Positions 9,153 to 58,451 of a stretch of 64,000 bases of DNA are shown piece after piece. Source of the stretch: Pycnococcus provasolii (Eukaryota > Chlorophyta > Pseudoscourfieldiophyceae > Pseudoscourfieldiales > Pycnococcaceae); NCBI GenBank assembly GCA_938743325.2, contig OW568898.1, forward strand, positions 248,189 through 312,188. The letters run 5' to 3'. A model generated the notes under the pieces. It made no database searches, was not told where the DNA came from, and was given only the letters and a program-made list of their open reading frames with translations. Positions within the stretch are counted from its first letter, which is position 1. Every line of letters starts with the position of its first letter. Both the position numbers and the translations under genes were made by a program.

Positions 9153-10411
9153 TTAATTGATTATGTAAGAATTCGTGGGGTTGCAGCAACGCATCGGCTC
9201 GCCATTGGCATCCTTCAGAATGTTCGATCCATCGTCAGCTGACGTGCCGTTCAGGTTGTGCGGTCCTAGAATGGAGTCAATGACCTTCCATTGTGTATCA
9301 TTGATCATGTAATTCTCGTGACCCACGTTGATATCGTTTGAGGTGTTTGATACCGTAGCGGTTCCACCACCCTCAGCAGCGGTTCCACCACCCTCAGCGG
9401 CGGTTCCACCACCCTCAGCGGCTGTTTCATGTTGCGCTTCGACATCGCTGGGATCGTGCTTGAGCTTTTCAGTTGCCGTGAGCTCTCCACCACCCTCAGC
9501 TGGTGCACTCACCTTGCTGACATCGATGACACGGTTGATGGAATCGAAAAGCTCCACGGCGTGGATAAGATGGCCGCGTTCATATACCTGTTCATTGTCC
9601 GGATCCCAAACGAAATGAGTGTGCGCTGTCTTGCGCCCCAAGTAAATGTAAGGTTTCGCCTTGGAGCTGAAAGCCTTACGCAATTCTTTCGGTACCCATG
9701 AGTAGACCGTACAGCCAATCGTGCGGAGCGTGGACATATCTTGTACCTTGCGTAGCCATCGCGCTGCAGGTATCTTTGCCGTGGGGCTGTGGATCAGGTT
9801 GTTGCGAATTTGCGTGACTGTCTCAAGAATGAACGGCCAAGTCTGCTTTGGTATGTGAGGTGCGGCATGGAGTATGGCAAGTACATGCTCCCAGAGCACC
9901 CCGACCGGTGACTCATGACGCCCTCCAGCTTGAGGATCATACGGCGGCGATTGTTCTTGTACAATGCCGTTGTCTGTGCAATACTCGGGCAGTTCTCCTT
10001 CAATCAGCGGCTTGTCATTGTCTGTTCTCAGCCGCTTGATTGTGTGTCCAAGGGCCTTGGCCTGTGCATGAAAGTGCCTGAAACAACTCGCAGCGTCACT
10101 CTTGTGCACCATCGCATATGTTTCTGAGAAATTGCAGCAATCGTCCGTGAAGTGGATGAAGAACCGCTCTCCAGTGATGCCCTCATGCTCGAGAGGTCCC
10201 TTGATGTCACAATGGATGAGCGTGCCTACTGCGTTTTCTCGTTTGGAATTTCGCTTTTTCGGTGGGCGATGGCTTTTGCCTTGCAGGCATCCTGCACAAT
10301 GCTCAGGATGTCCACCGGATGCGTGCTGAGCCAGGTCGCCAAATTGAGCGCCGGCTTTGATTGACTCGACGATTTTCCTTGTTGATTTTTAGATGGAGAT
10401 TCCACACGCAA
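9153..10411 (-). mobile_element. Broken Ty1/copia LTR-retrotransposon fossil (integrase region)
   Basis: Minus-strand remnant of a copia-type pol gene. The recognisable parts are traces of the zinc-binding GAG-pre-integrase segment near the right end (about 10220-10411) and the integrase core and its C-terminal extension (about 9153-10112), including the family pattern TDNG-I-x-Q-x-SPPYDPQ and a closing GC-x-VYS-x-VPK-x-x-RKAF block. Gag, protease, reverse transcriptase and RNase H are not seen, and I recognise no pair of LTRs. A short Gly/Pro-rich direct repeat lies at about 9357-9420. The copy looks broken, truncated at both sides with a few breaks, and moderately old. It lies next to two DNA transposons. 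Confidence 0.85.
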
Positions 10412-10809: not shown

Positions 10810-10932
10810 CCCTAAAATGGACCCCCCTTTTGGGGATCCCGCCCCCCCCCCGCCAGGTCGGGGCCCGGTGTTTACCGGTCCCCAGAACGGAACATCTCAG
10901 TACTTAAGGCCACCTTAAGGTGAATTGGCGTC

Positions 10933-13389
10933 ATGGGCCGCAAGAAGAGCTTCAAGAAGAAGTTGTCGCCGTTTTCAGCACGCGTTCTACGGCACCAACA
11001 GTTGACTGAAGCTGTGAACTGGTGCAGGCTGAACGGAAAGGGTTACAAAGCATGTCTAAGCCACGCCAAGAAGGAAAAAAAGTGGCCGTTGGTCAAGGCT
11101 CAATCGTTGAAGAGAAGATTGGCGGGATCTGTGAAGAATGGAAGAGAGAATGAGGCGCGGCAGGTGCTTACTGTCGACGAAGAAGAACAGCTTATAACTT
11201 GGATGGTACAGTCTAACCGCGAGCACAACGGCAAGACAGAGCCGGACGTGAAAGCGAAGGTTATCGAGATTTTAATGCACCGTCGGCATCAACTCGTCAC
11301 GATGCGAAAGAATAACAAAGCAGGCGGAAGAAACTACATAAAACTCTCTTCTGTAGCGAAGAACATTCTAAAAAAACAAAAGGTTGGTGGGAAGTTGTTG
11401 AGGCGTCTTAAAAGGAAGTATCAGGACAGATTGGACACCAAAAATACGGAGAAGGTGACTACGCGACGCGCCGAGAAGAACAATGATGAAGTAGTCGACC
11501 GACACTTCAACGGTGAAGCTGGCCTGGAAAAGACTTTACTTAAGCTTGGAATTATGGACCCGGTGACGAAGAGGATACAGTCGCCCGAAAGAGTCTTAAA
11601 CAAGGACGAGACTCCTCAGATGATCGATTACGAAACGACAAGGTCCGGGCAAAAGAAAGTATTTACTGGAAGAGGCGAGGATGCCTTCCGAAATGTCGCG
11701 GAGACACGCGAGTGTCAAACGTTGGACGTCACATGGGGACTCGACGGCTGGCAGTATCATGCCCACCTTGTTGTTAATAGAAAGTCGGTCACCGACGACT
11801 TCGTACAGCCTGACACGGAAGTGTTTGATGGGACGCTTGATGTTGTCAACAAGGTGTCACGGAAGCTACTGATTTCTCCCACGGAGAAGGGATCTCAAAC
11901 TGGAACGTCGTTTCTTGCAAGCATGAAAGAGCTTAAGGCTGAGCTCGAGGAGCGCAAAATACAGTTTCCAGTGTGTTTGTGTTTGGATAATCATATTAGC
12001 AGATACCACGATGATGTCATCCAATGGGGAGAGGACAATGGCATTGAATTCTTCTTTGAAGAATCCAACACGAGCGGCTTTCTTCAAGCCTTGGATCAAT
12101 ACAACCGGCAGCTCCATCTAAAGTATAATGAAGCCAAGGACCTGTACAAGAAAGGCCGTGCTCTCTATATGGTTAGCAACGGGAGTCAGAAGGTTGATTA
12201 CACGACAGTCAAAATCAATCTGGTTGACTTCGTAAGGATTCTGGCGACATTCTGGTTCACGTGGTCATCAATTGCGGACAGGATAAAAAGTTTTATGGAA
12301 GTTGGGATCACGAAGGAAGGCCTCTTTCCTGAACTCATCAACCGCTGCAAGTTCACTGCCATTTCCGACAGCGGCGGCGGCGCACAGAGCGGCGGCGTCG
12401 GAGCCAGCGGCGGCGTCGGAGCCAACGGGGGCGTCGGAGCCAGCGGCGGCGTCGGAGCCAGCGGCGGCGTCGGAGCAAGCGGCGGCGTCGGAGCCAGCGG
12501 CGGCGTCGGAGCTAGCGGCGGTGTTGCAATCGGCAGCGTCGGAGAGAGCCAAGGCGGCTCGGTCGCGCCCACGCCGGGTTCGCAGCTATCTCGGCAGCGG
12601 TATGAAACGAGAACGTCGATACATGCAGAACTTGATCGACTAACGGCGGAGAACGCGTTATTGCATCGCATCATCACTGCGAAAGAGGAACACGAGGCCG
12701 ACCTCAAGAAGTACGGCCTGCTCGCCATTGAACCTATCAAGCCGTCGGAAACCAACAGGAAGAAGAGAAAGCAGCTCAGCGATGTTTCTGGTTCGGTGAC
12801 TCTTTCTCAACTGAAAAAGCGAAAGCAAGATAGGGCTGACGCAGAAAAACAGAAGGAGGCCGACGCTCTGAAGAGGAAAGAGGAACGAGCAGCAGCTAAG
12901 GCAGCACGCGGTACCACGCGACGCAACGATAACGCAGCGCCAGAGCGCGTTGCCGCGTTTCTGGCTTGTCAAATTGCCTGTGTGTGTGGTGATGTTCCCT
13001 GCAAGTGGAAGGGATTAAAAATGTGTCAGTTCTGCCAAGCTGTGAAGCAAAGGCTCTGCAATAAGCCAGAGTGCAGCGCGAAGCGCAAAGCAGAGGAGGC
13101 AAAAGCAAAGCAAGCAGCGCTGCCGCCACCGCCTCAACCGCCACCGCCACTGCCGTCTGCTCTACCTACCCTCGTTCCGCCGGCCGCAGAAGAGGATCCT
13201 TTCGACCCACCTCCTCCTCCTCTTACTAGAGAAGACCTGCTCAATCTCGAGCTCTCGTCGCCCAGCTGCTCGGACTCGGACATCAGTGGCACTGACAGCA
13301 GCAGCAGTGACGACAGCGACGACAACAGTGGCGACAGCGAAGACGAGAGACACCCGAACGAGGCGCCATCCTTCGAAGAAATGGAGTAA
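10933..13389 (+). CDS. Pogo/Tigger-like DDE transposase
   Basis: 818 residues from an ATG 144 bases inside the left inverted repeat. Residues ~20-65 fit a psq-type helix-turn-helix and ~75-120 a CENP-B-like DNA-binding segment. The DDE_1 catalytic core has the family signatures: NKDE (D225), LDNH (D352) and LQALDQ (D388). The 35-residue spacing of the last two gives the DD35D form expected in the pogo branch. After the core comes a degenerate repeat of GGVGAS (about residues 483-535), encoded by an 18-base tandem repeat, then a basic coiled segment. A Cys-rich patch (about 676-718) with several C-x-C and C-x2-C pairs looks like a small zinc-binding module. The tail is Pro-rich then Ser/Asp-rich. 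The Cys patch and long tail are not standard for the family. All three acidic residues are present, so it could be functional. Confidence 0.9.
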   Translation: MGRKKSFKKKLSPFSARVLRHQQLTEAVNWCRLNGKGYKACLSHAKKEKKWPLVKAQSLKRRLAGSVKNGRENEARQVLTVDEEEQLITWMVQSNREHNGKTEPDVKAKVIEILMHRRHQLVTMRKNNKAGGRNYIKLSSVAKNILKKQKVGGKLLRRLKRKYQDRLDTKNTEKVTTRRAEKNNDEVVDRHFNGEAGLEKTLLKLGIMDPVTKRIQSPERVLNKDETPQMIDYETTRSGQKKVFTGRGEDAFRNVAETRECQTLDVTWGLDGWQYHAHLVVNRKSVTDDFVQPDTEVFDGTLDVVNKVSRKLLISPTEKGSQTGTSFLASMKELKAELEERKIQFPVCLCLDNHISRYHDDVIQWGEDNGIEFFFEESNTSGFLQALDQYNRQLHLKYNEAKDLYKKGRALYMVSNGSQKVDYTTVKINLVDFVRILATFWFTWSSIADRIKSFMEVGITKEGLFPELINRCKFTAISDSGGGAQSGGVGASGGVGANGGVGASGGVGASGGVGASGGVGASGGVGASGGVAIGSVGESQGGSVAPTPGSQLSRQRYETRTSIHAELDRLTAENALLHRIITAKEEHEADLKKYGLLAIEPIKPSETNRKKRKQLSDVSGSVTLSQLKKRKQDRADAEKQKEADALKRKEERAAAKAARGTTRRNDNAAPERVAAFLACQIACVCGDVPCKWKGLKMCQFCQAVKQRLCNKPECSAKRKAEEAKAKQAALPPPPQPPPPLPSALPTLVPPAAEEDPFDPPPPPLTREDLLNLELSSPSCSDSDISGTDSSSSDDSDDNSGDSEDERHPNEAPSFEEME
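12373..12535 (+). repeat. 18-bp coding minisatellite in the transposase
   Basis: About eight to nine imperfect copies of an 18-base unit (GGCGTCGGAGCCAGCGGC) encode the GGVGAS repeat. The same tract is open on both strands, which produces several false antisense frames. Confidence 0.85.
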
Positions 13390-33821: not shown

Positions 33822-36800
33822 TCAAATTTTGCGCACTCGACGTCGCGTGCGCGGTTTCGAAGGCTCAGCTTCTGCGTCGCCACCTGTGGATGGCGTGCTG
33901 GCCGCGCCAGCCGAATGAAGGAAGTAGTCGAGCAGCATTTTGTGTTGATCCTCAAGCACGCGTTGCCCATCCAGGACATCATCTAACCTAGCCATCAAGC
34001 TTTCACGCGCGTCCTTTTCCGCCTCCACATCGAGCACCTCGATGCTTGTGGAGGCTGTCGGATTAGCTCGATCGCGCACGGATTCTGCGCGAACACCGAG
34101 GCTGGCCATGATGCGGCGAGCGGCCACCTTTGTGTCGAAATCCTCACCTTCTGCCACCGCGTCGATGGCATCCTCAAGTTCGCTGAGTGCAATGACATCT
34201 GTGAGAAACGTGTTGTGTGTGTGAAGTTGAGAACATCGTGGGAATAGTTTAAGTTAGTACACAGGAAATCAATGCTATCGTTTCGGATCATTTGAAAAAG
34301 TAACGTACCAGATGGCGTGGTGAGCACCTTGGACTCCACGGGCGTCTGTCCCGCACGCCGGTAAGCATCACGTGCGGAGTACTTGGCGTCATCACCACCT
34401 ATGCTTCTCACAAATCGTCGTAGCGTGCGCATTCCACCATCCGAATCTACCAAACTTTTCACGAGCAGTCCAATTTCTCGGAGCACGCCAGGTTCACCGT
34501 CGGTGCCATACTCCTGGACAAGTCGCTGCCGCTCTGAGTCATGAGAGTTGATGAAAATTGCAATCACGAAGCCGAAAGATAGTCCTAGCTGCAGCATGGC
34601 GTAGCTCCAAAAATAGAGAATGGCGTTTGCATGGAGGTAATCGTTGTAATCAGTTTCGCGCATGAGCTCCGCATTGAACTTAGTATCCCCAAGGACCACT
34701 TCGACAAGTGCGACGAGAGCCTTGGGCACCGTCGACAAGCTGTCGACAAGATCACCAAATACAACGTGGCCAATAAGTGCGTACGCAATAAGGCACATGA
34801 GGAACACACACAGGAAGTTTACGAGGTCCGCTCCAGCATAATGCACCGTGTTGACAAATGCCCCAAGTCGAGGCTGGAACGTCATCGATGTCAGTGTTCG
34901 GCATAGCAGAAGGAACAAACATGCTCCCGCGAGTACAAAGTAGTACGTAAGCAGGTCGCATATGCGGTCGAGATCGGACATTTTGTCGGCAAGAGCATGC
35001 AGCGCTGCTTGAGAATTGCCGGGAAGCACTGGAGATGACGGTGGGCCATAGGGGATGGCGTACACGTCGTATCGAAGATTCACCGAGAAATCATCCGTCA
35101 CGCCGAAAGCGATGAAGTACCAAAATGCAATAACGCCAAGAAAGAAAAGGATGCTGATCACATCAATCTTTGACGAAAGACTTCGGCGATATGCAGGACT
35201 TGTGATCAATCCATGCGTCGTAATTCCCATGTCAAGCACCCCAAGAGAGATTAGTGTAATCTCGAAGGCAAGACGCACGTAGTCCGACGTTGTCTCGTAG
35301 GCAGACATCTTTGCAGATCGTATCGTTGGCTCGACACGTATGAGCCCACTGTCGCCACGATGGAAACGCAATTTCACGTAACCGAAGCGACGGAGTTCTG
35401 AATTCCAAACGGCAATGCGCGCGTCCATATGCAAAAGCGAATCGTCCACAAATCCACCATTTTTCGCAAAGGCGGCAAGAGATTGTGCTTCGCTAGAGCT
35501 CATGTCAATATCGAAATACAGCGGGTACCCTCGATCGCGGAAGGCGGCAAGTCGCTTCACTGGTGAGTAGAATGCAAATGGCATCCCTCGTGCGTCGTAC
35601 ATTTCTGAACAATACTCCACAGGATCAGTAAAAGCCGTTCGATTTAGCGGATAAGTCGCACGCGCCGTGACATGGCGCTGGCTACTCGACTGCCCAATTT
35701 TAGAACAATTATACTGGATGAATTTGCGAACCTCGTCATCTGTGAATGACGATGCGGACGACGAAGGTATGTCACTGCCATACGGGGCATTTGTGAGCCC
35801 GTCGCCGCAGGACACCTGTCCGTTGAGACTGTCAAATCGGCTTTTCGGGCAGGACCCTTCTCGTTCGCGGACGGTCTGAACGAGCAGCCCGCCCACGATA
35901 CGATTCACGTCACCGCCCAACGTTCGAACGCGGACTGCCGATGCACCCGCCGCCGAACGACCCGAGGGAATGTTCAAACTGCGTCCAAGCACGCTGCAGG
36001 GCATGTTTGCAATAATTGCAGCTTTTTCAAGCTTTAGTGCGTCTTCGCGCGCCTGATCTCTTAGTTTGTCCGCACTAGCTGCGTCGATAACACCTTCTGC
36101 AACGGCCTTGTCAACATCGGCAATTTTTGCCGCAAGAGCATTGCTGATCTCACTTGGCTTTGACGTCATGCGCTGCGCAAAAGCGTTTAGACGGGCTCTT
36201 GTCAAAGACGGCGAGATCGCACGAGGCGTGGACAATTGAATGGTGCTTGCACGACCGAACATCGCACGTTCAAGCTCAGCACTCATATGCCGCAGCTCGG
36301 TGTCCAACGAGGACAGCGATGCGGTAATCATGTCGTCAAGATTCGCCCCAGCAGATGACTTGATTGTGCTCTCAAGCATTGCAACGTTGCGCTCAATCTG
36401 CCTAGCCTCGGCTAAAATTGTGCCTTGATTCGACTCGAGATTTTCCAGCGTTTGCGCAATCGGCGAAGCTTGCGAAAGATGCCGGCGGCGTTTAGAGCTG
36501 GCCGCATCAGACGCTGCCGCCGTCGCCGCCGCCGTCGCGTTCGTCGTTGTTGCCGTCGTCGTTGCGGGCGGTGGCGGCGGGTCGACAGCACACGTTTCGC
36601 AACCGCAGAATTGCGTCGCAGTACAAGTGGCTGGGCACTCGCACACCAAGGTACACTTTGCAATATCGGGATATCGGATCGTGTTCGTTAGATTTTGGCA
36701 GGAGCCAGCATAGGCACTCGCGCGCCTGCCGATCGCAAATGTTTGGTACGCAGTGCTTGCACCCGCGAGTCGCGCAATCGTAGGTGCGGGCACGATTCCG

Positions 36801-39151
36801 CTAATCTCTTTAGGCTGTGCTTGAAGGGCATACTTCACCTCGGCAATGCGCGCGAGAACGGTAGATTCCAGCGTTGCCTTTGGGAGCGAGGCAACCGAAG
36901 CTGGCTGTAGCGCTGATGTGTACTTGCTTTGGATATTCAATTTTGCAATTTGGTCATTCACGAGCGTCTGCAGAGACGCTTTCTCCACGTCGCTCGCGTA
37001 AGGTCCCACTGCAAGGCTGATCTCAAGTGCAAGCAGATAATCCACCTTCTCACGGAGCTCCTTGAGAAAGCCTTGCGCGCAGGACAATGCCTCATCTTGT
37101 GCATACTGCTTCGCCTCGCTCAGCAGAGCACGTGCGGCACTTTCAGCAACTGGCACGGCATCACCAGCCTGTCGCACTAAATCGGTGCACCCTGCTAGCG
37201 TTTGATTCATTGCGCACACTTTGCGCAACTCTGACAGAGACGTCAAGGTGCTGTTCTTCTCATCTATCGCAGCTTGCAAGCGCGCGTCGTGCTCGGCCTG
37301 TGTGAGAATGCCGCTTGTGAGATTGGCGGAAAGATCAATCGCCGTCGAATTCGCCTCGAACGTCGCGAGTGTCTCCAACGCGTTGTCGAACGTGCTGGCG
37401 AGAAGTGCCGCCGATGACTCGAGAGCAACCTGCTCCTTTTGGAGATATCTAGATGCACCGCAGGTTGACGCCACCTCTTTCTTCGCTCGCGTGGCGCTTT
37501 CCGCGACATCTTTTTTGTTCTTCAACTCCCAGCTCACGGCATGGAACCAGTCTCCCATCACGTGCATTGTCCATGCGGAGTCCGTGGGAAGATTGTGAAG
37601 CGTGACCACTTCGTTGCCGCTTCCAAGTATCCCCAGTTTTTGCGAGCTCGCGTAGTAGCACGTCCGTCGATCCTCAGACAGACATACGTTCCACTCAACG
37701 TCCGCGCTGAGCTCCGCAGTCGTGGCACTGACTCCCGTTGCGGCGGCAGAATCTGCGATGTTGCTTTTGATGTGCAAACGCAGTGTGCGTCCCGCGCCGG
37801 GAATGTCGGCGACTCGCCCGCAGTCCGCCACGCATCCATGTGCGTCGCTCCCCTCCCCACCAAATCCTGGAACCTCGCGTCCTAGTGCCGCGTCACACAC
37901 GCCGTTGCCGCACGGATCGTCGACCCAGCTCGACGAGACCGTTTGCTCAATCCACGTCTGCGCAGCCATGCTGCTTGTAAATTCTCTCGTCGACGGAACC
38001 ACGGCGTCGCGGATCGATCGTGCCATGTCAAAGGACGCGCCTGCTTGCCTCTGATCTGCAAGAACGTATGCATAAACGGCCAGTGCGAAGACGAGCGCGA
38101 ACATCTTGAAGTATGCAAGAACACGGCGATCGAGCGCGTGTACCCACGCCGCCAGCTTAGATGCAAGTCGTGCAAGCTCTGGATTGCTGATGCCCTTCTC
38201 CATCTGCTCGACAGACATGGAAGCGGCACCACCTGCTTTCTGTTTGGCGGCGGCGTTTCCCTTGTTACTTTCGTCCTTTTTGCTGCCGCCCCGCTGGCGC
38301 GACGTCGTCGGCGATGGAGTCTTCTTATCGTCGTCGTCGTCCGCGTCGTCTTCGTTGTTTTGATTGCGCATGCGCTTGACTTTTCGTCGAGCACTTGCAC
38401 CCCTTGCACGAGTCTGTATGACGGCTGCCGCACGTTTTGTTTTCTCAAACTCCCTCCGTGCGACGACCGCCTTCCACTTTGCCGCGATGAGCGAAGCGGC
38501 CTTACGTTCCCGTTCGTCTGCAAATATTGAGAAGGACGGCGACGGGGATGACGACTTTCCCTTCTTGCCTTTGGCGACCGTCGTCGGTGGCACGAGGTCG
38601 TAGACGTCGTCGTCGTCGTCGTCGTCGTCGTCATCGTCGTCGCCACGTCGCGGCGGCGTTCCTTCGTCCAGGTCGTCGTCGTCCATGCCGAGCATGTCTG
38701 CAAGACTCGTTGCTCTCTTGTCGTCGCCGTCGCCGTTCGGGGACGTCGACGTCCCCGCCAAGGCGTCCGTGACACGCTGCGCCGTTTCGTACTGCTTGAC
38801 AACGTCTTGCACGGCGGCCAAGGACTGTTCTAGCGTTGGTTCTACGATGAGTCCGCTCATGGAGAGTTCGTCCTCTTTTGGGTTGTGCGAGGACACTTCC
38901 GAGCGGGCCGCGCCAGACGTCTGGTGCAGCTGCTCTTGCTCTTGCTCTTGCTGCAGCTCAGGTGTCCTCTCGCCCTCCTCGGACGACTCCTCTTCGGACG
39001 GCAGGTCTCCCACCCCTTCCGCCAGTAGAGCGAGCGCCGCCTCCGCCTGCTCCGGTTCGAGGTGCGCGAGCGTCTCCACCTGTTCGCCTAATGACATTCC
39101 GTTAAGACGACGTGCAATCTGAGGAGTCGAGAGCCCAAGGAGGTCCGCCAT
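33822..39151 (-). CDS. Polycystin-like (PKD2/TRPP) cation channel with N-terminal IQ region; two exons
   Basis: I place the start at the ATG 39149-39151 (MADLLGL); upstream frame lacks ATG. Exon 1 is 39151-34309 and exon 2 is 34198-33822, giving 1,739 residues and a preserved frame. The N-terminus is acidic, then has IQ-like basic helices (about 213-257: AAKWKAVVARREFEKTKRAA, VIQTRARG) that may bind calmodulin. A first membrane helix follows near 345-365, then a very long extracellular, coiled and Cys-rich region. The C-terminal third is the channel: a polycystin-type extracellular domain (YPLYFDIDMSSSEAQSLAAF) and about five membrane helices (about 1280-1540), including FVNTVHYAGADLVNFLCVF and VVLGDTKFNAEL in the pore region. 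Family members conduct Ca2+/monovalent cations in cilia and other membranes. A short coiled tail is encoded by exon 2. Confidence 0.9.
34199..34308 (-). other. Spliceosomal intron of the polycystin-like gene
   Basis: 110 bases. On the minus strand it begins GTACGT and ends CTCACAG, with a perfect TACTAAC branch site at 34253-34259. Removing it joins ...TTPS-D-VIALSELEDA in phase and adds a tail of about 125 residues. The retained frame would otherwise run into unrelated sequence. Confidence 0.85.
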
Positions 39152-39420
39152 GGTTAAAAGTGGAAGTGGAGGAGGGGAAGGGGGCAAAGAAGAGGGGGGG
39201 AAGTTTGGTTTTTGCGCGCCAAAATCACACCTGTGCGAATCTCACCGGGAAAGGGGAGGAAATCATAGGGACCTCAAGTGGATCCCCAACAAGAACACGA
39301 TAGTCCTCTTCCTCCTCCTTCTCCTCTCCTCCTCCTCCTTCGCAATCGGTTCCGGCGAGGAGCTCTTATGGGAGCTCGTCGTTACAAGGGTGCCCTCCCT
39401 GCCCTCCTCCCCCAACACCC

Positions 39421-39473
39421 CATCAGCCAAGGGCATATCAAACCATGGGTTAATAATATGCCCTTGCATCAGC
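39421..39473. repeat. Palindromic mini-insert, copy 1, with 7-bp direct repeats
   Basis: A 39-base near-palindrome (39428-39466) starts CAAGGGCATAT and ends ATATGCCCTTG. It is flanked on both sides by CATCAGC (39421-39427 and 39467-39473), which looks like a target-site duplication. The centre is less symmetrical than in copy 2. Confidence 0.75.
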
Positions 39474-40090
39474 CCTCATCACTGCACCCAGGCACTGCCC
39501 CCAGGGGCCAATAATAAGGCCAAATAGACTTCTCTAGACTACTGGAATGCGTGCCCAATAATAAACCATGCCTCGCCCTCAAGGCCCCACCTGAGCACCT
39601 GAGGGAGTGAGGGGCCCACCCATTCTGTGCCAATGATGCGAACGGGCCCCCACCCTTCGGCCAGCCAGGTGCTTGGTTGCTTCATTAATGGGGTGTGTTG
39701 GCGAATCAGGGGCGAATAATGGAAGAATGCTTTTTCATTTTCCTTTCCCTCGCAAGTGGGAAAATCCTTCATGGAAAGAAAGTGGAACCCTCCTCCTCTG
39801 ATTTTAATGTATCTCTCCCGCAAACCACGGGTGGCTCATCGCATGCATGGCATCATCCCCCCACCTAAGTAGGCAGTCAGCTAAGGTAAGGGGTGCGTTG
39901 CCAACGTTGCCATCAAGAAATCAGGACGCCAATTCCAGTAGTCTATCGCGTGCAGTGCAGTGCCATCCCCAACAATTCCCCATCACGTGAGTCCACAGGA
40001 GCTCCACGTAAGGCTCGCTTCGGCTTCGTTAGTCTAAGGCCGTCGACGCCGTTGGCCTTGGGAAGCCGAAAACGCGTCCCCCGAATCAAG

Positions 40091-40139
40091 CACTAGCCAA
40101 GGGCATATCAACCCAGGGTTGATATGCCCTTGCACTAGC
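40091..40139. repeat. Palindromic mini-insert, copy 2, with 7-bp direct repeats
   Basis: A 35-base perfect palindrome (40098-40132): two 17-base arms (CAAGGGCATATCAACCC and its inverse) around a single A. It is flanked by CACTAGC at 40091-40097 and 40133-40139. The arms match copy 1, but the flanking 7-mers differ, as expected for two separate insertions of the same unit. Confidence 0.8.
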
Positions 40140-40320
40140 GTAGGACTAGCACACGCTCACGTGAGTGGGCCCTTGGAACAAACAAGCACGAGCACGGGGG
40201 GTGACGCCGCATCAATTAACGCATTCCTCACACACATTATCAAAGCTTGATCAAAGACTCGCCTTAAGTGCCACACCAACTCAACACAACACATCACATC
40301 ACAACAAAGGCCGCATTGCA

Positions 40321-41283
40321 ATGTGCAAGAACACAGTAGTAGCACGAAGACGCTCGTATGTTCCGTACAATGCCACACAAACAATTGTCTTAATTGTGGC
40401 CAGCCTCCTGCTCGCCACGTCGTCGACGAGTGCGTGCAACGCAAACACACTCCACGACGACGAGGTCGAATGTCAGACAACGCACGTCGACGTGAACGTC
40501 GTCGCCGTGAGAAACGCAAGATACCGAGTCACTGTGACCTGCGACGTGCCGTGCGAAACGAACAGCACGGCGGGAACAAACAGTGTGTGCCAACGCGTGT
40601 CACTTCTACTCGACGGGAACAGCCACTTGCCCAAAACACTCGCTTCTCGCGTGCACTTGAACCATACGTACATCACGTGCGTCGCTCGCCTAATGGTGGG
40701 GGAGTCCATGTCGCAGGGAACGCCGTACTCGCGCTTTGGTGCAGGAAGTGTGTCGTCGACGCCGTCGTCGTCGTCCAACGGCATATACGACAGCGGCGAA
40801 GAATTTGCCATAAACGTGACCGACACGTTCATAACACAGGGTATGGAGGAGCAGCTTGCTGACGGAGGCGTGATTGAGTTTCGCGCAGTGCCGAGCATGG
40901 CGAATGCGACGAACGCAAGGAGCAAGCAATACAGCAGGAAGGTTGAGCCAGCGCCATACTACGAGGAGGACAACAAGGATAGCCCTGTCATGCTTGCCGT
41001 GCTTTACTCCATGGCTGGCGCACTCTCGGTATTTGGCATATACTTTGTTTACATGCTGTACGAGTCGTACCGTCCGAGGACGGCGCCGGCGCCAGGCTCC
41101 AACGCGGCATCACGACCGCTGGAATTGGTGGAAATCAAGGAGGGTGTCAACATCATCCATCCTGACGGCAGCACGACAGTGGCGTTGGAATGCACGCCGA
41201 CGCCGTCGCTGTGTTCTCCAACACCGAAATCCTCGCCTCGGACGAGCATGGAGGCTTGGCCGAGGCCGATGAGGGAGACTTAG
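40321..41283 (+). CDS. Single-pass membrane glycoprotein, family unknown
   Basis: 320 residues from the ATG at 40321; the frame is open upstream but only from a GTG. A hydrophobic segment at 18-34 (ATQTIVLIVASLLLATS) is a signal peptide or anchor. An extracytoplasmic region of ~185 residues has six cysteines after the signal segment and five N-x-S/T sites (for example NATQ, NSTA, NHTY, NVTD, NATN). A second membrane helix lies at ~223-247 (AVLYSMAGALSVFGIYFVYM), followed by a ~70-residue cytoplasmic tail rich in Pro, Ser and Thr. The layout is type I receptor- or adhesion-like, but I recognise no domain. Confidence 0.75.
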   Translation: MCKNTVVARRRSYVPYNATQTIVLIVASLLLATSSTSACNANTLHDDEVECQTTHVDVNVVAVRNARYRVTVTCDVPCETNSTAGTNSVCQRVSLLLDGNSHLPKTLASRVHLNHTYITCVARLMVGESMSQGTPYSRFGAGSVSSTPSSSSNGIYDSGEEFAINVTDTFITQGMEEQLADGGVIEFRAVPSMANATNARSKQYSRKVEPAPYYEEDNKDSPVMLAVLYSMAGALSVFGIYFVYMLYESYRPRTAPAPGSNAASRPLELVEIKEGVNIIHPDGSTTVALECTPTPSLCSPTPKSSPRTSMEAWPRPMRET

Positions 41284-58060: not shown

Positions 58061-58451
58061 GTGGAATGGCGAGTGGAATGGAGAGCAAAAAAGTCAGGCG
58101 CAGGAAAACGAAACGGCCTGCCACCGCGGGAGACTCCGGAATGATAATCTGTGATAGTCTATGGCGGCGCACGAAGCAGGCCGAGGAGAAGTCCTATCCC
58201 CGAATTACATAGATTTAATTAGGGGTTAGGGGTTAGGGGTTAGGGGTTAGGAAACCCATGGGTCCCACCCCACGTTCACATGAACCGACCAACTAACCAA
58301 ATCACACGCTGGCTGGTTGGTTGCCGACGAGATTATGTCACCTTGCTTGCATTGGCAGATGGTTGGACGGCATACTTACTGTAATCTCGATTACACTAGT
58401 CTACTGGAATGAGCATGAGCCTCGTGCTATGCTCGATCTTTGGACTGGACT
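58061..58451. other. Upstream region of DIS3 with telomere-like repeat
   Basis: About 390 bases separating two minus-strand genes. It carries a TTAGGGG array (listed separately) and a TGGTTGGTTG-type repeat near 58308-58323. No gene is seen. Confidence 0.5.
58219..58251 (+). repeat. Interstitial TTAGGGG array
   Basis: Four full and one partial copies of the heptamer TTAGGGG, close to plant/algal telomere repeats. G-rich runs at this spacing can form a G-quadruplex. Confidence 0.8.

What the first reader, a model, noticed from the sequence alone, without database searches (positions are those of the whole stretch)
39421..40139. Two tiny palindromes, each bracketed by its own 7-bp direct repeat
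The units at 39428-39466 and 40098-40132 share arms CAAGGGCATAT...ATATGCCCTTG. Each is flanked by a different perfect 7-mer (CATCAGC twice; CACTAGC twice). That is the signature of two independent insertions of a 35-39-bp palindromic element with 7-bp target duplication. Elements this short with almost nothing but two arms are not a class I know in green algae. They could be ultra-short MITEs mobilised in trans, or products of a hairpin-capturing repair process.
Basis: partly seen in the sequence, partly recalled or inferred. Interest (0 to 1): 0.78.

Follow-up and report, generated by a model that had tools for sequence, protein, structure and literature searches.

The report
Scars left by departed jumping genes
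The two tiny palindromes are most likely repair scars left where copies of a P-element-like jumping gene cut themselves out of an alga-like genome, and dozens of such scars preserve a record of how the enzyme cuts, how the cell mends the break and where the element lands.

Summary
In detail: two palindromes (39 and 35 bp), each between perfect 7-bp direct repeats. Genome-wide, of 40 places of the form CAAGGGC-(0-30)-GCCCTTG, 31 have a perfect 7-bp repeat, 5 have one mismatch, 3 chance-like places have none and 1 is nested in another. They are best explained not as 35-bp elements but as excision footprints of a P-superfamily DNA transposon resident in the same genome. It has 5.5-kb copies, 7-bp target duplications, ends CAAGGGCATAT, and a transposase whose profile hits Drosophila P transposase 6p5a at E 3.3e-20. 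Fly P transposase cuts 17 nt inside the element, so fly scars read duplication, at most 17-nt arm, junction, at most 17-nt arm, duplication (PMC2895639 Table 1). Here, of 109 exact arms, 75 stop matching a resident end by nt 22 (peak at 18), 1 at 23, and 33 run on for 31 nt or more. Junctions show overlaps, abutting ends or filler. An unexpected extra: in 42 of 57 insertions a telobox-like CCCNAA ends exactly 5 bp from the duplication, never on both sides. Confidence 0.9.

The parts
39407..39415 (+). telobox-like target motif of scar 1 (CTCCCCCAA; its CCCCAA fits the rule, the leading AA of the consensus is absent), ending exactly 5 nt before the target duplication
   Evidence: sequence; same position of CC[CT]NAA in 42 of 57 sites
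39421..39427 (+). left copy of 7-bp target site duplication CATCAGC
39428..39466 (+). excision footprint 1 (39 bp): stubs of the two element ends rejoined; left stub of the CAAGGGCATATCAACCCA type with one substitution, right stub like the CAAGGGCATATTAACCCA type with a 3-nt insertion (my reading by eye)
   Evidence: a resident 665-bp element (L083) carries the same two end types, one at each end
39467..39473 (+). right copy of target site duplication CATCAGC
40077..40085 (+). telobox-like target motif of scar 2 (TCCCCCGAA; leading AA absent), ending exactly 5 nt before the target duplication
   Evidence: sequence
40091..40097 (+). left copy of 7-bp target site duplication CACTAGC
40098..40132 (+). 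excision footprint 2 (35 bp): 18-nt left stub and 17-nt right stub abutting
40133..40139 (+). right copy of target site duplication CACTAGC

Best explanation
Each palindrome is the end-joined scar of a departed P-superfamily DNA transposon. Step 1 (shown by pattern): an element with ends CAAGGGCATAT... inserted next to a telobox-like motif and duplicated 7 bp. Step 2 (inferred from arm lengths, by homology to P transposase): its transposase cut at the element tip on one strand and about 18 nt inside on the other, leaving an 18-nt 3' tail of terminal sequence on each chromosome end. Step 3 (shown by junction types; pathway inferred): end joining rejoined the tails by short overlaps, abutting ends or inserted filler. 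The result is duplication, arm of at most about 18 nt, junction, arm of at most about 18 nt, duplication. The scars themselves are immobile (inferred).
For: (1) Resident elements with the same ends and 7-bp duplications exist: 16 two-ended copies, all 16 with perfect duplications (pairs of ends were accepted only with at most one mismatch, and 4 further resident ends, L087, L089, L096 and L100, have no partner found). They include 5473 bp (L084), copies at C42, C3 and C40, and a 248-bp MITE family (7 copies). (2) ORF1 of L084 hits the P-transposase domains PF21788 (E 3.7e-5) and PF21787 (E 2.3e-4). The profile of 4 relatives hits PDB 6p5a, Drosophila P transposase, at E 3.3e-20, its only hit at E up to 1; D455, D568, DMPH 623-626 and E821 are invariant among the 4. 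ORF1 has three copies at 100% reported identity. (3) Arm ceiling: the 109 distinct exact arms read equal in number the places listed (90, 19). Match length to the best of four resident ends is 14-22 nt in 75 (35 at 18, 14 at 17), 23 in 1 and 31 or more in 33. Where it is 19-22, the extra letters can also come from the other arm or the duplication, except in L036 (19 nt, perhaps filler) and L073 (a 97-bp internally deleted resident). (4) Junctions of 41 two-ended scars (40 independent; L020 and L115 are one duplicated locus): 17 overlaps (1, 2, 4 or 6 nt), 6 abutting, 18 with filler or later mutations. Of 10 of these 18 fillers tested, 4 share words with the arms reached by at most 14 of 500 shuffles. 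(5) Six one-sided scars: 17-18 nt of one arm, 1-3 nt of the other, then the duplication (L005, L010, L090, L095, L097, L104). (6) The same anatomy, including one-sided and recurrent identical junctions (14 isolates of one), is printed for experimental fly P excisions (PMC2895639 section 7 with Table 1); the 17-nt cut is stated in PMC7776569 (passages).
Against: A 24-bp asymmetric form (18-nt arm plus 7-nt arm, 1-nt overlap) occurs at 9 two-ended sites with different duplications, more often than a 1-nt overlap would suggest; L064, L111 and L114 share its TCCGCCCTTG end, which hints at a parental end type not found intact. L069 has arms that match no resident end found here. L020/L115 match the resident ends only for 13 and 7 nt and carry 24-35 nt of filler, so they are doubtful members. 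Of 20 partner-less arms (L088 and L092 share flanks), 12 show no second 7-mer within 68 nt; one of these, L073, is a resident element whose far end lies beyond the search, and the rest need a deletion into the flank or another history. 6 of 10 tested fillers show no clear copying from the arms, and 8 of 18 were not tested. ORF1 alone scores just under Pfam's curated cut-offs (24.5 against 24.8; 21.9 against 24.6). No empty-site comparison and no experiment.
Confidence: 0.9

Rival explanations
1. Ultra-short MITEs: the 24-36-bp palindromes are themselves transposed in trans by the P-like transposase.
For: Identical sequences at several sites with different 7-bp duplications: 24 bp at 9 sites (7 perfect duplications, 2 with one mismatch), 34 bp at 5 and 36 bp at 3 (all perfect). 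The family is mobile and a transposase is present.
Against: The copies stop at about nt 17-18 of the terminal repeat while resident copies share much longer ends; P transposase of flies binds internal sites beyond the terminal repeats (PMC7776569 passages), which these would lack. One-sided scars, filler and many different lengths are not expected of a mobile unit. Recurrent identical junctions also arise in fly excisions.
Confidence: 0.06
2. Internal deletion derivatives made during failed gap repair, with the element otherwise still in place (not excision).
For: Internal deletions do occur in this family: the 97-bp and 248-bp copies (L073, L076).
Against: Random internal deletion has no reason to stop at 17-18 nt from both ends; only 1 of 109 arms falls between 23 and 30 nt.
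Confidence: 0.03
3. Palindromic elements unrelated to transposons (hairpin capture, or a nuclear analogue of organellar palindromic repeats; the latter recalled).
For: Palindromic shape.
Against: Arms equal the ends of resident transposons, with the same 7-bp duplication and the same target motif.
Confidence: 0.01

Closest known systems
Drosophila P-element excision footprints (PMC2895639, section 7 with Table 1 read, other passages)
   Same: duplication, at most 17-nt arm, junction, at most 17-nt arm, duplication; overlap, blunt, filler and one-sided products; recurrent identical junctions
   Different: 7-bp rather than 8-bp duplication; arm ceiling about 18 rather than 17 nt; alga-like host; found as dozens of standing scars in one assembly instead of being recovered in a cross
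Galileo, P superfamily (PMC4168063, abstract and passages read)
   Same: 7-bp duplications, P-superfamily transposase, long terminal repeats
   Different: Galileo's target motif is a palindrome centred on the duplication; here the motif lies 5 bp outside it on one side only
Fly and zebrafish P / THAP9 elements (PMC7776569, PMC10983969, PMC8230255, passages read)
   Same: RNase H catalytic core with GTP-binding insertion domain
   Different: 8-bp duplications there, 7-bp here; no THAP domain detected in the parts scanned; a second convergent ORF (681 aa) of unknown family

Membership tests
P superfamily (parent element) | P-type RNase H transposase core with DDE triad and [C/D](2)H motif (as described in PMC8230255 passages) | tested here: met
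   profile of 4 relatives vs 6p5a E 3.3e-20; the alignment covers LAFDEM, SDTPH and QDIVEHFF stretches of the fly protein, which I take to hold D230, the [C/D](2)H motif and E531; D455, D568, DMPH, E821 invariant in A1. The middle D is placed by conservation only
P superfamily (parent element) | GTP-binding insertion domain | tested here: inconclusive
   PF21788 E 3.7e-5 for ORF1 but 24.5 bits against a cut-off of 24.8; matched in 3 of 4 members at E up to 0.1
P superfamily (parent element) | 7- or 8-bp target duplication | tested here: met
   all 16 two-ended resident elements have a perfect 7-bp duplication; pairs accepted only with at most one mismatch
P superfamily (parent element) | THAP DNA-binding domain (typical of animal members; not taken here as defining the superfamily) | tested here: not met
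   no THAP match in Pfam scans of ORF1 and ORF2 nor of the 4 members of A1; two of these (L120, L121) were fetched for the matched part only
P-type excision footprint | both target duplications kept, with terminal stubs not longer than the staggered cut | tested here: met
   ceiling at about 18 nt, one 19-nt exception (L036)
P-type excision footprint | junctions with overlaps, filler and one-sided loss | tested here: met
   17 overlap, 6 abutting, 18 filler of 41; 6 one-sided of 20 partner-less arms
P-type excision footprint | direct observation of excision or an occupied allele | not testable with these tools
   one assembly only, no strain or reads
MITE | keeps the terminal and subterminal sequence shared with the autonomous partner and needed for mobility | tested here: not met
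   in the 24-63-bp units nothing beyond about nt 18 of the resident ends remains; that the lost sequence is needed is by analogy with fly P

The most novel reading that the evidence does not exclude
This P-superfamily transposon chooses its target by recognising a telobox-like motif (AAcCCCtAA), common between genes, on one side at a fixed 5-bp distance and in either element orientation, through a separate selector, perhaps the convergent ORF2 protein or a host telobox-binding factor. That would be a P-type element with a two-part, asymmetric targeting system, and its scars are the record of that choice.
Probability: 0.35. Interest if true: 0.7.

Novelty: new variant of a known kind. Interest (0 to 1): 0.52.

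Why it matters
One assembly holds 41 two-ended (40 independent) and 6 one-sided excision scars against 16 two-ended resident copies of the same family. So the stagger of the cut (about 18 nt), the repair outcomes of a non-model alga-like host and the target choice can be read from standing sequence. The one-sided motif at fixed spacing is unusual: PMC4168063 (passage) states, citing earlier work, that transposon target motifs are always palindromes extending beyond the duplication. It also warns that tiny palindromes with target duplications should not be filed as new mobile elements before a staggered-cut transposon has been looked for.

Tried and rejected
Rfam scan of 39000-40600: no match. 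ORF1 single-sequence search of PDB gave only chance globin matches; the profile was needed. ORF2: no Pfam family (one meaningless match at E 1.6), no PDB hit, no protein relative at E up to 1e-3 among the 7993 candidates scored, residues 60-500. A homeodomain-like look of its N-terminus is my recollection only and was not supported. An intact element with a CAAGGGCGGATT end, as parent of the 24-bp form, was sought and not found: of 20 places, 11 lie in scars already known, 1 is a mutated 24-bp scar (L105, perfect duplication by eye), 1 is in L111, and the other 7 look unrelated. The 14-bp inverted pair between the two scars (39535-39548 and 39932-39945) is no dispersed family. Arms with other single mismatches (one search counts 129 places with up to one mismatch, listing 100) were not all read. 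Paper searches for reports of such scars, of P elements in algae or of telobox targeting showed no such report in the titles and abstract openings listed (8 to 20, or fewer, rows each); unopened listed papers, such as PMC8226300 on Chlamydomonas genomes or PMC1562414 on P-related MITEs of a mosquito, may hold something, and subscription journals are not covered. Structure prediction was not run, because the transposase comes from a source outside those the tool names.

Full report
Observation. They are part of a genome-wide set: 23 places for CAAGGGCAT-N(2-32)-ATGCCCTTG with 0 for the reversed control. 21 of the 23 have perfect 7-bp repeats and 2 have one mismatch. For the broader pattern, 40 places (control 7): 31 perfect, 5 with one mismatch, 1 nested in another scar, and 3 without any repeat and without the CATAT letters.

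The source. The same ends bound larger elements in this 32.3-Mb, 46-contig assembly (the window is contig 38, 248189-312188): a 248-bp family (7 copies), single copies of 97, 657, 665, 1013 and 1251 bp, one of 5473 bp (L084), and long ones at C42 (5.6 kb), C40 (7.5 kb) and C3 (9.8 kb). All 16 have perfect 7-bp duplications. Four other resident ends (L087, L089, L096, L100) have no partner found. My two-ended list of 57 sites kept only pairs with at most one mismatch in the repeat, so its 50 perfect of 57 (34 of 41 short, 16 of 16 long) is conditional; the counts in the first paragraph are not. The 41 short ones hold one duplicated locus (L020 and L115 share flanks), so 40 are independent. L105, a mutated 24-bp scar, is not among them.

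The transposase. L084 holds two convergent frames of 885 and 681 aa. ORF1 matches TNP-like GBD and RNase H N domains of P transposase (just under the curated cut-offs). A profile of ORF1, two relatives from the same genome and protein P0001 finds only Drosophila P transposase 6p5a in the PDB at E up to 1, at E 3.3e-20. ORF1 has three copies at 100% reported identity and further relatives down to 27%. ORF2 accompanies ORF1 in C31, C42 and C3 and, at 32% identity, in C40, whose ORF1 is 40% identical; part of it (51%) lies in the 1251-bp element on C37 and a fragment on C12. So this looks like a two-gene P lineage. No THAP domain was found in the parts scanned.

Why scars. Fly P transposase cuts the tip on one strand and 17 nt inside on the other (PMC7776569, passages). 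Experimental fly scars therefore read: duplication, at most 17 nt of one end, junction, at most 17 nt of the other, duplication (PMC2895639, section 7 with Table 1). In the fetched loci I found 109 distinct exact arms CAAGGGCATATTAA or CAAGGGCATATCAA, as many as the places listed (90, 19), and measured how far each matches the best of four resident ends: 14 nt in 8, 15 in 5, 16 in 1, 17 in 14, 18 in 35, 19 in 1, 21 in 2, 22 in 9, 23 in 1, 31 or more in 33. The 22s are palindromic CCCATGGG scars, or arms followed by a duplication that begins GG, where the last letters can come from the other side. The 19 (L036) may include a filler letter. L100 and L073 are resident copies among the shorter matches. 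Among ends with A at position 18 and T at 19, L004, L010, L014, L017, L027, L074 (both arms), L094, L095 and L097 keep the A and not the T; L003, L041, L088, L092 and the other arm of L017 stop at 17. So the ceiling looks like 18 nt rather than 17.

Junctions. Of 41 two-ended short scars, 17 show overlaps (6 nt in L033, 4 nt in L045 and L068, 2 nt in five 34-bp scars, 1 nt in nine 24-bp scars), 6 abut and 18 carry filler or later mutations. I tested 10 of the 18 fillers, leaving out six of 1-7 nt and two that look like mutated arms (L001 and the 39-bp window copy): 4 share a word with the arms that at most 14 of 500 shuffles reach (L072, L042, L074, L075); the other 6 do not stand out. Of 20 arms without a partner (L088 and L092 share flanks), 6 have the 7-mer again at once after 17-18 nt plus 1-3 nt of the other tip. 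L004's repeat is a simple-sequence artefact, L100's is probably coincidence inside a resident element, and 12 show none within 68 nt, of which L073 is a resident element whose far end lies beyond that range. The nine identical 24-bp scars are the weakest point of the model.

Window copies. The 35-bp unit is an 18-nt stub abutting a 17-nt stub. The 39-bp unit has, by eye, one substitution on the left and a 3-nt insertion on the right relative to two end types that sit together on a resident 665-bp element (L083). Both scars lie between a minus-strand frame with a polycystin-channel domain (33995-39241) and a plus-strand frame (40165-41283), that is, in what looks like a shared upstream region (stop-to-stop frames, gene starts not established).

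Target. In 42 of 57 sites CC[CT]NAA ends exactly 5 nt before the duplication; 15 sites lack it, L084 among them. A slightly broader rule gave 43, with 0 sites on both sides. The same motif reaches at most 7 of 114 ends at any other distance. The logo of the 42 is A A c C C C t A A at -14 to -6, with no strong preference within the duplication; the columns -11, -10, -7 and -6 are fixed by the selection rule and -9 is limited to C or T, while the A's at -14 (35 of 42) and -13 (33 of 42) are free. Both window copies fit the core but lack those leading A's. In the 248-bp family the motif lies beside either end (3 and 3; one copy without it), so the element inserts in both orientations. In the window AA[AC]CCCNAA occurs 14 times against a mean of 2.2 in 30 first-order Markov sequences; by eye most lie outside or at the edge of the large frames, one (20903) inside, and four form one tandem run. 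Telobox is a recalled name for AAACCCTAA.

Limits. No second strain, reads or experiment. The genome search warns that counts of repeats are lower bounds. Function of ORF2 and its role in targeting are conjecture.

Noticed in passing
window 39535-39548 and 39932-39945: Perfect 14-bp inverted pair TAGACTACTGGAAT between the two scars, compatible with a TA-flanked mini-element; the exact 14-mer was listed nowhere else in the genome, so not a dispersed family.
   Followed up: partly
window 9153-10388 (-): Open frame with retroviral-type integrase core and SH3-like domain (PF00665 below its cut-off, PF25597), probably a retrotransposon remnant.
   Followed up: partly
window 10924-13389 (+): 821-aa frame that by eye resembles a pogo/DDE-type transposase; Pfam gave only a weak match below cut-off to an unrelated family.
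   Followed up: partly
L084 3078-5123 (-): Second convergent gene of the P-like element, with no recognisable family, kept beside the transposase in two divergent lineages.
   Followed up: partly
L010 around 1495-1540: Two outward-pointing arms share one 7-mer (GGAACGC), as if two insertion or excision events had used the same site.
   Followed up: no
window, e.g. 46428, 53823, 58219-58240, 60212: AA[AC]CCCNAA motif is about six times more frequent than in first-order Markov sequences and by eye lies mostly between genes, a possible promoter element of this genome.
   Followed up: partly
L069 (C39:280330-280371): 42-bp near-perfect palindrome with a perfect duplication whose arms match no resident end found here; its parent may be extinct or missing from the assembly.
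   Followed up: no
L020 (C1) and L115 (C37): Two copies of one locus with shared flanks, near the starts of two contigs (about 6 kb in), holding a CAAGGGCATATCA...GCGCCCTTG unit with an imperfect repeat; looks like a duplicated contig-end region.
   Followed up: partly
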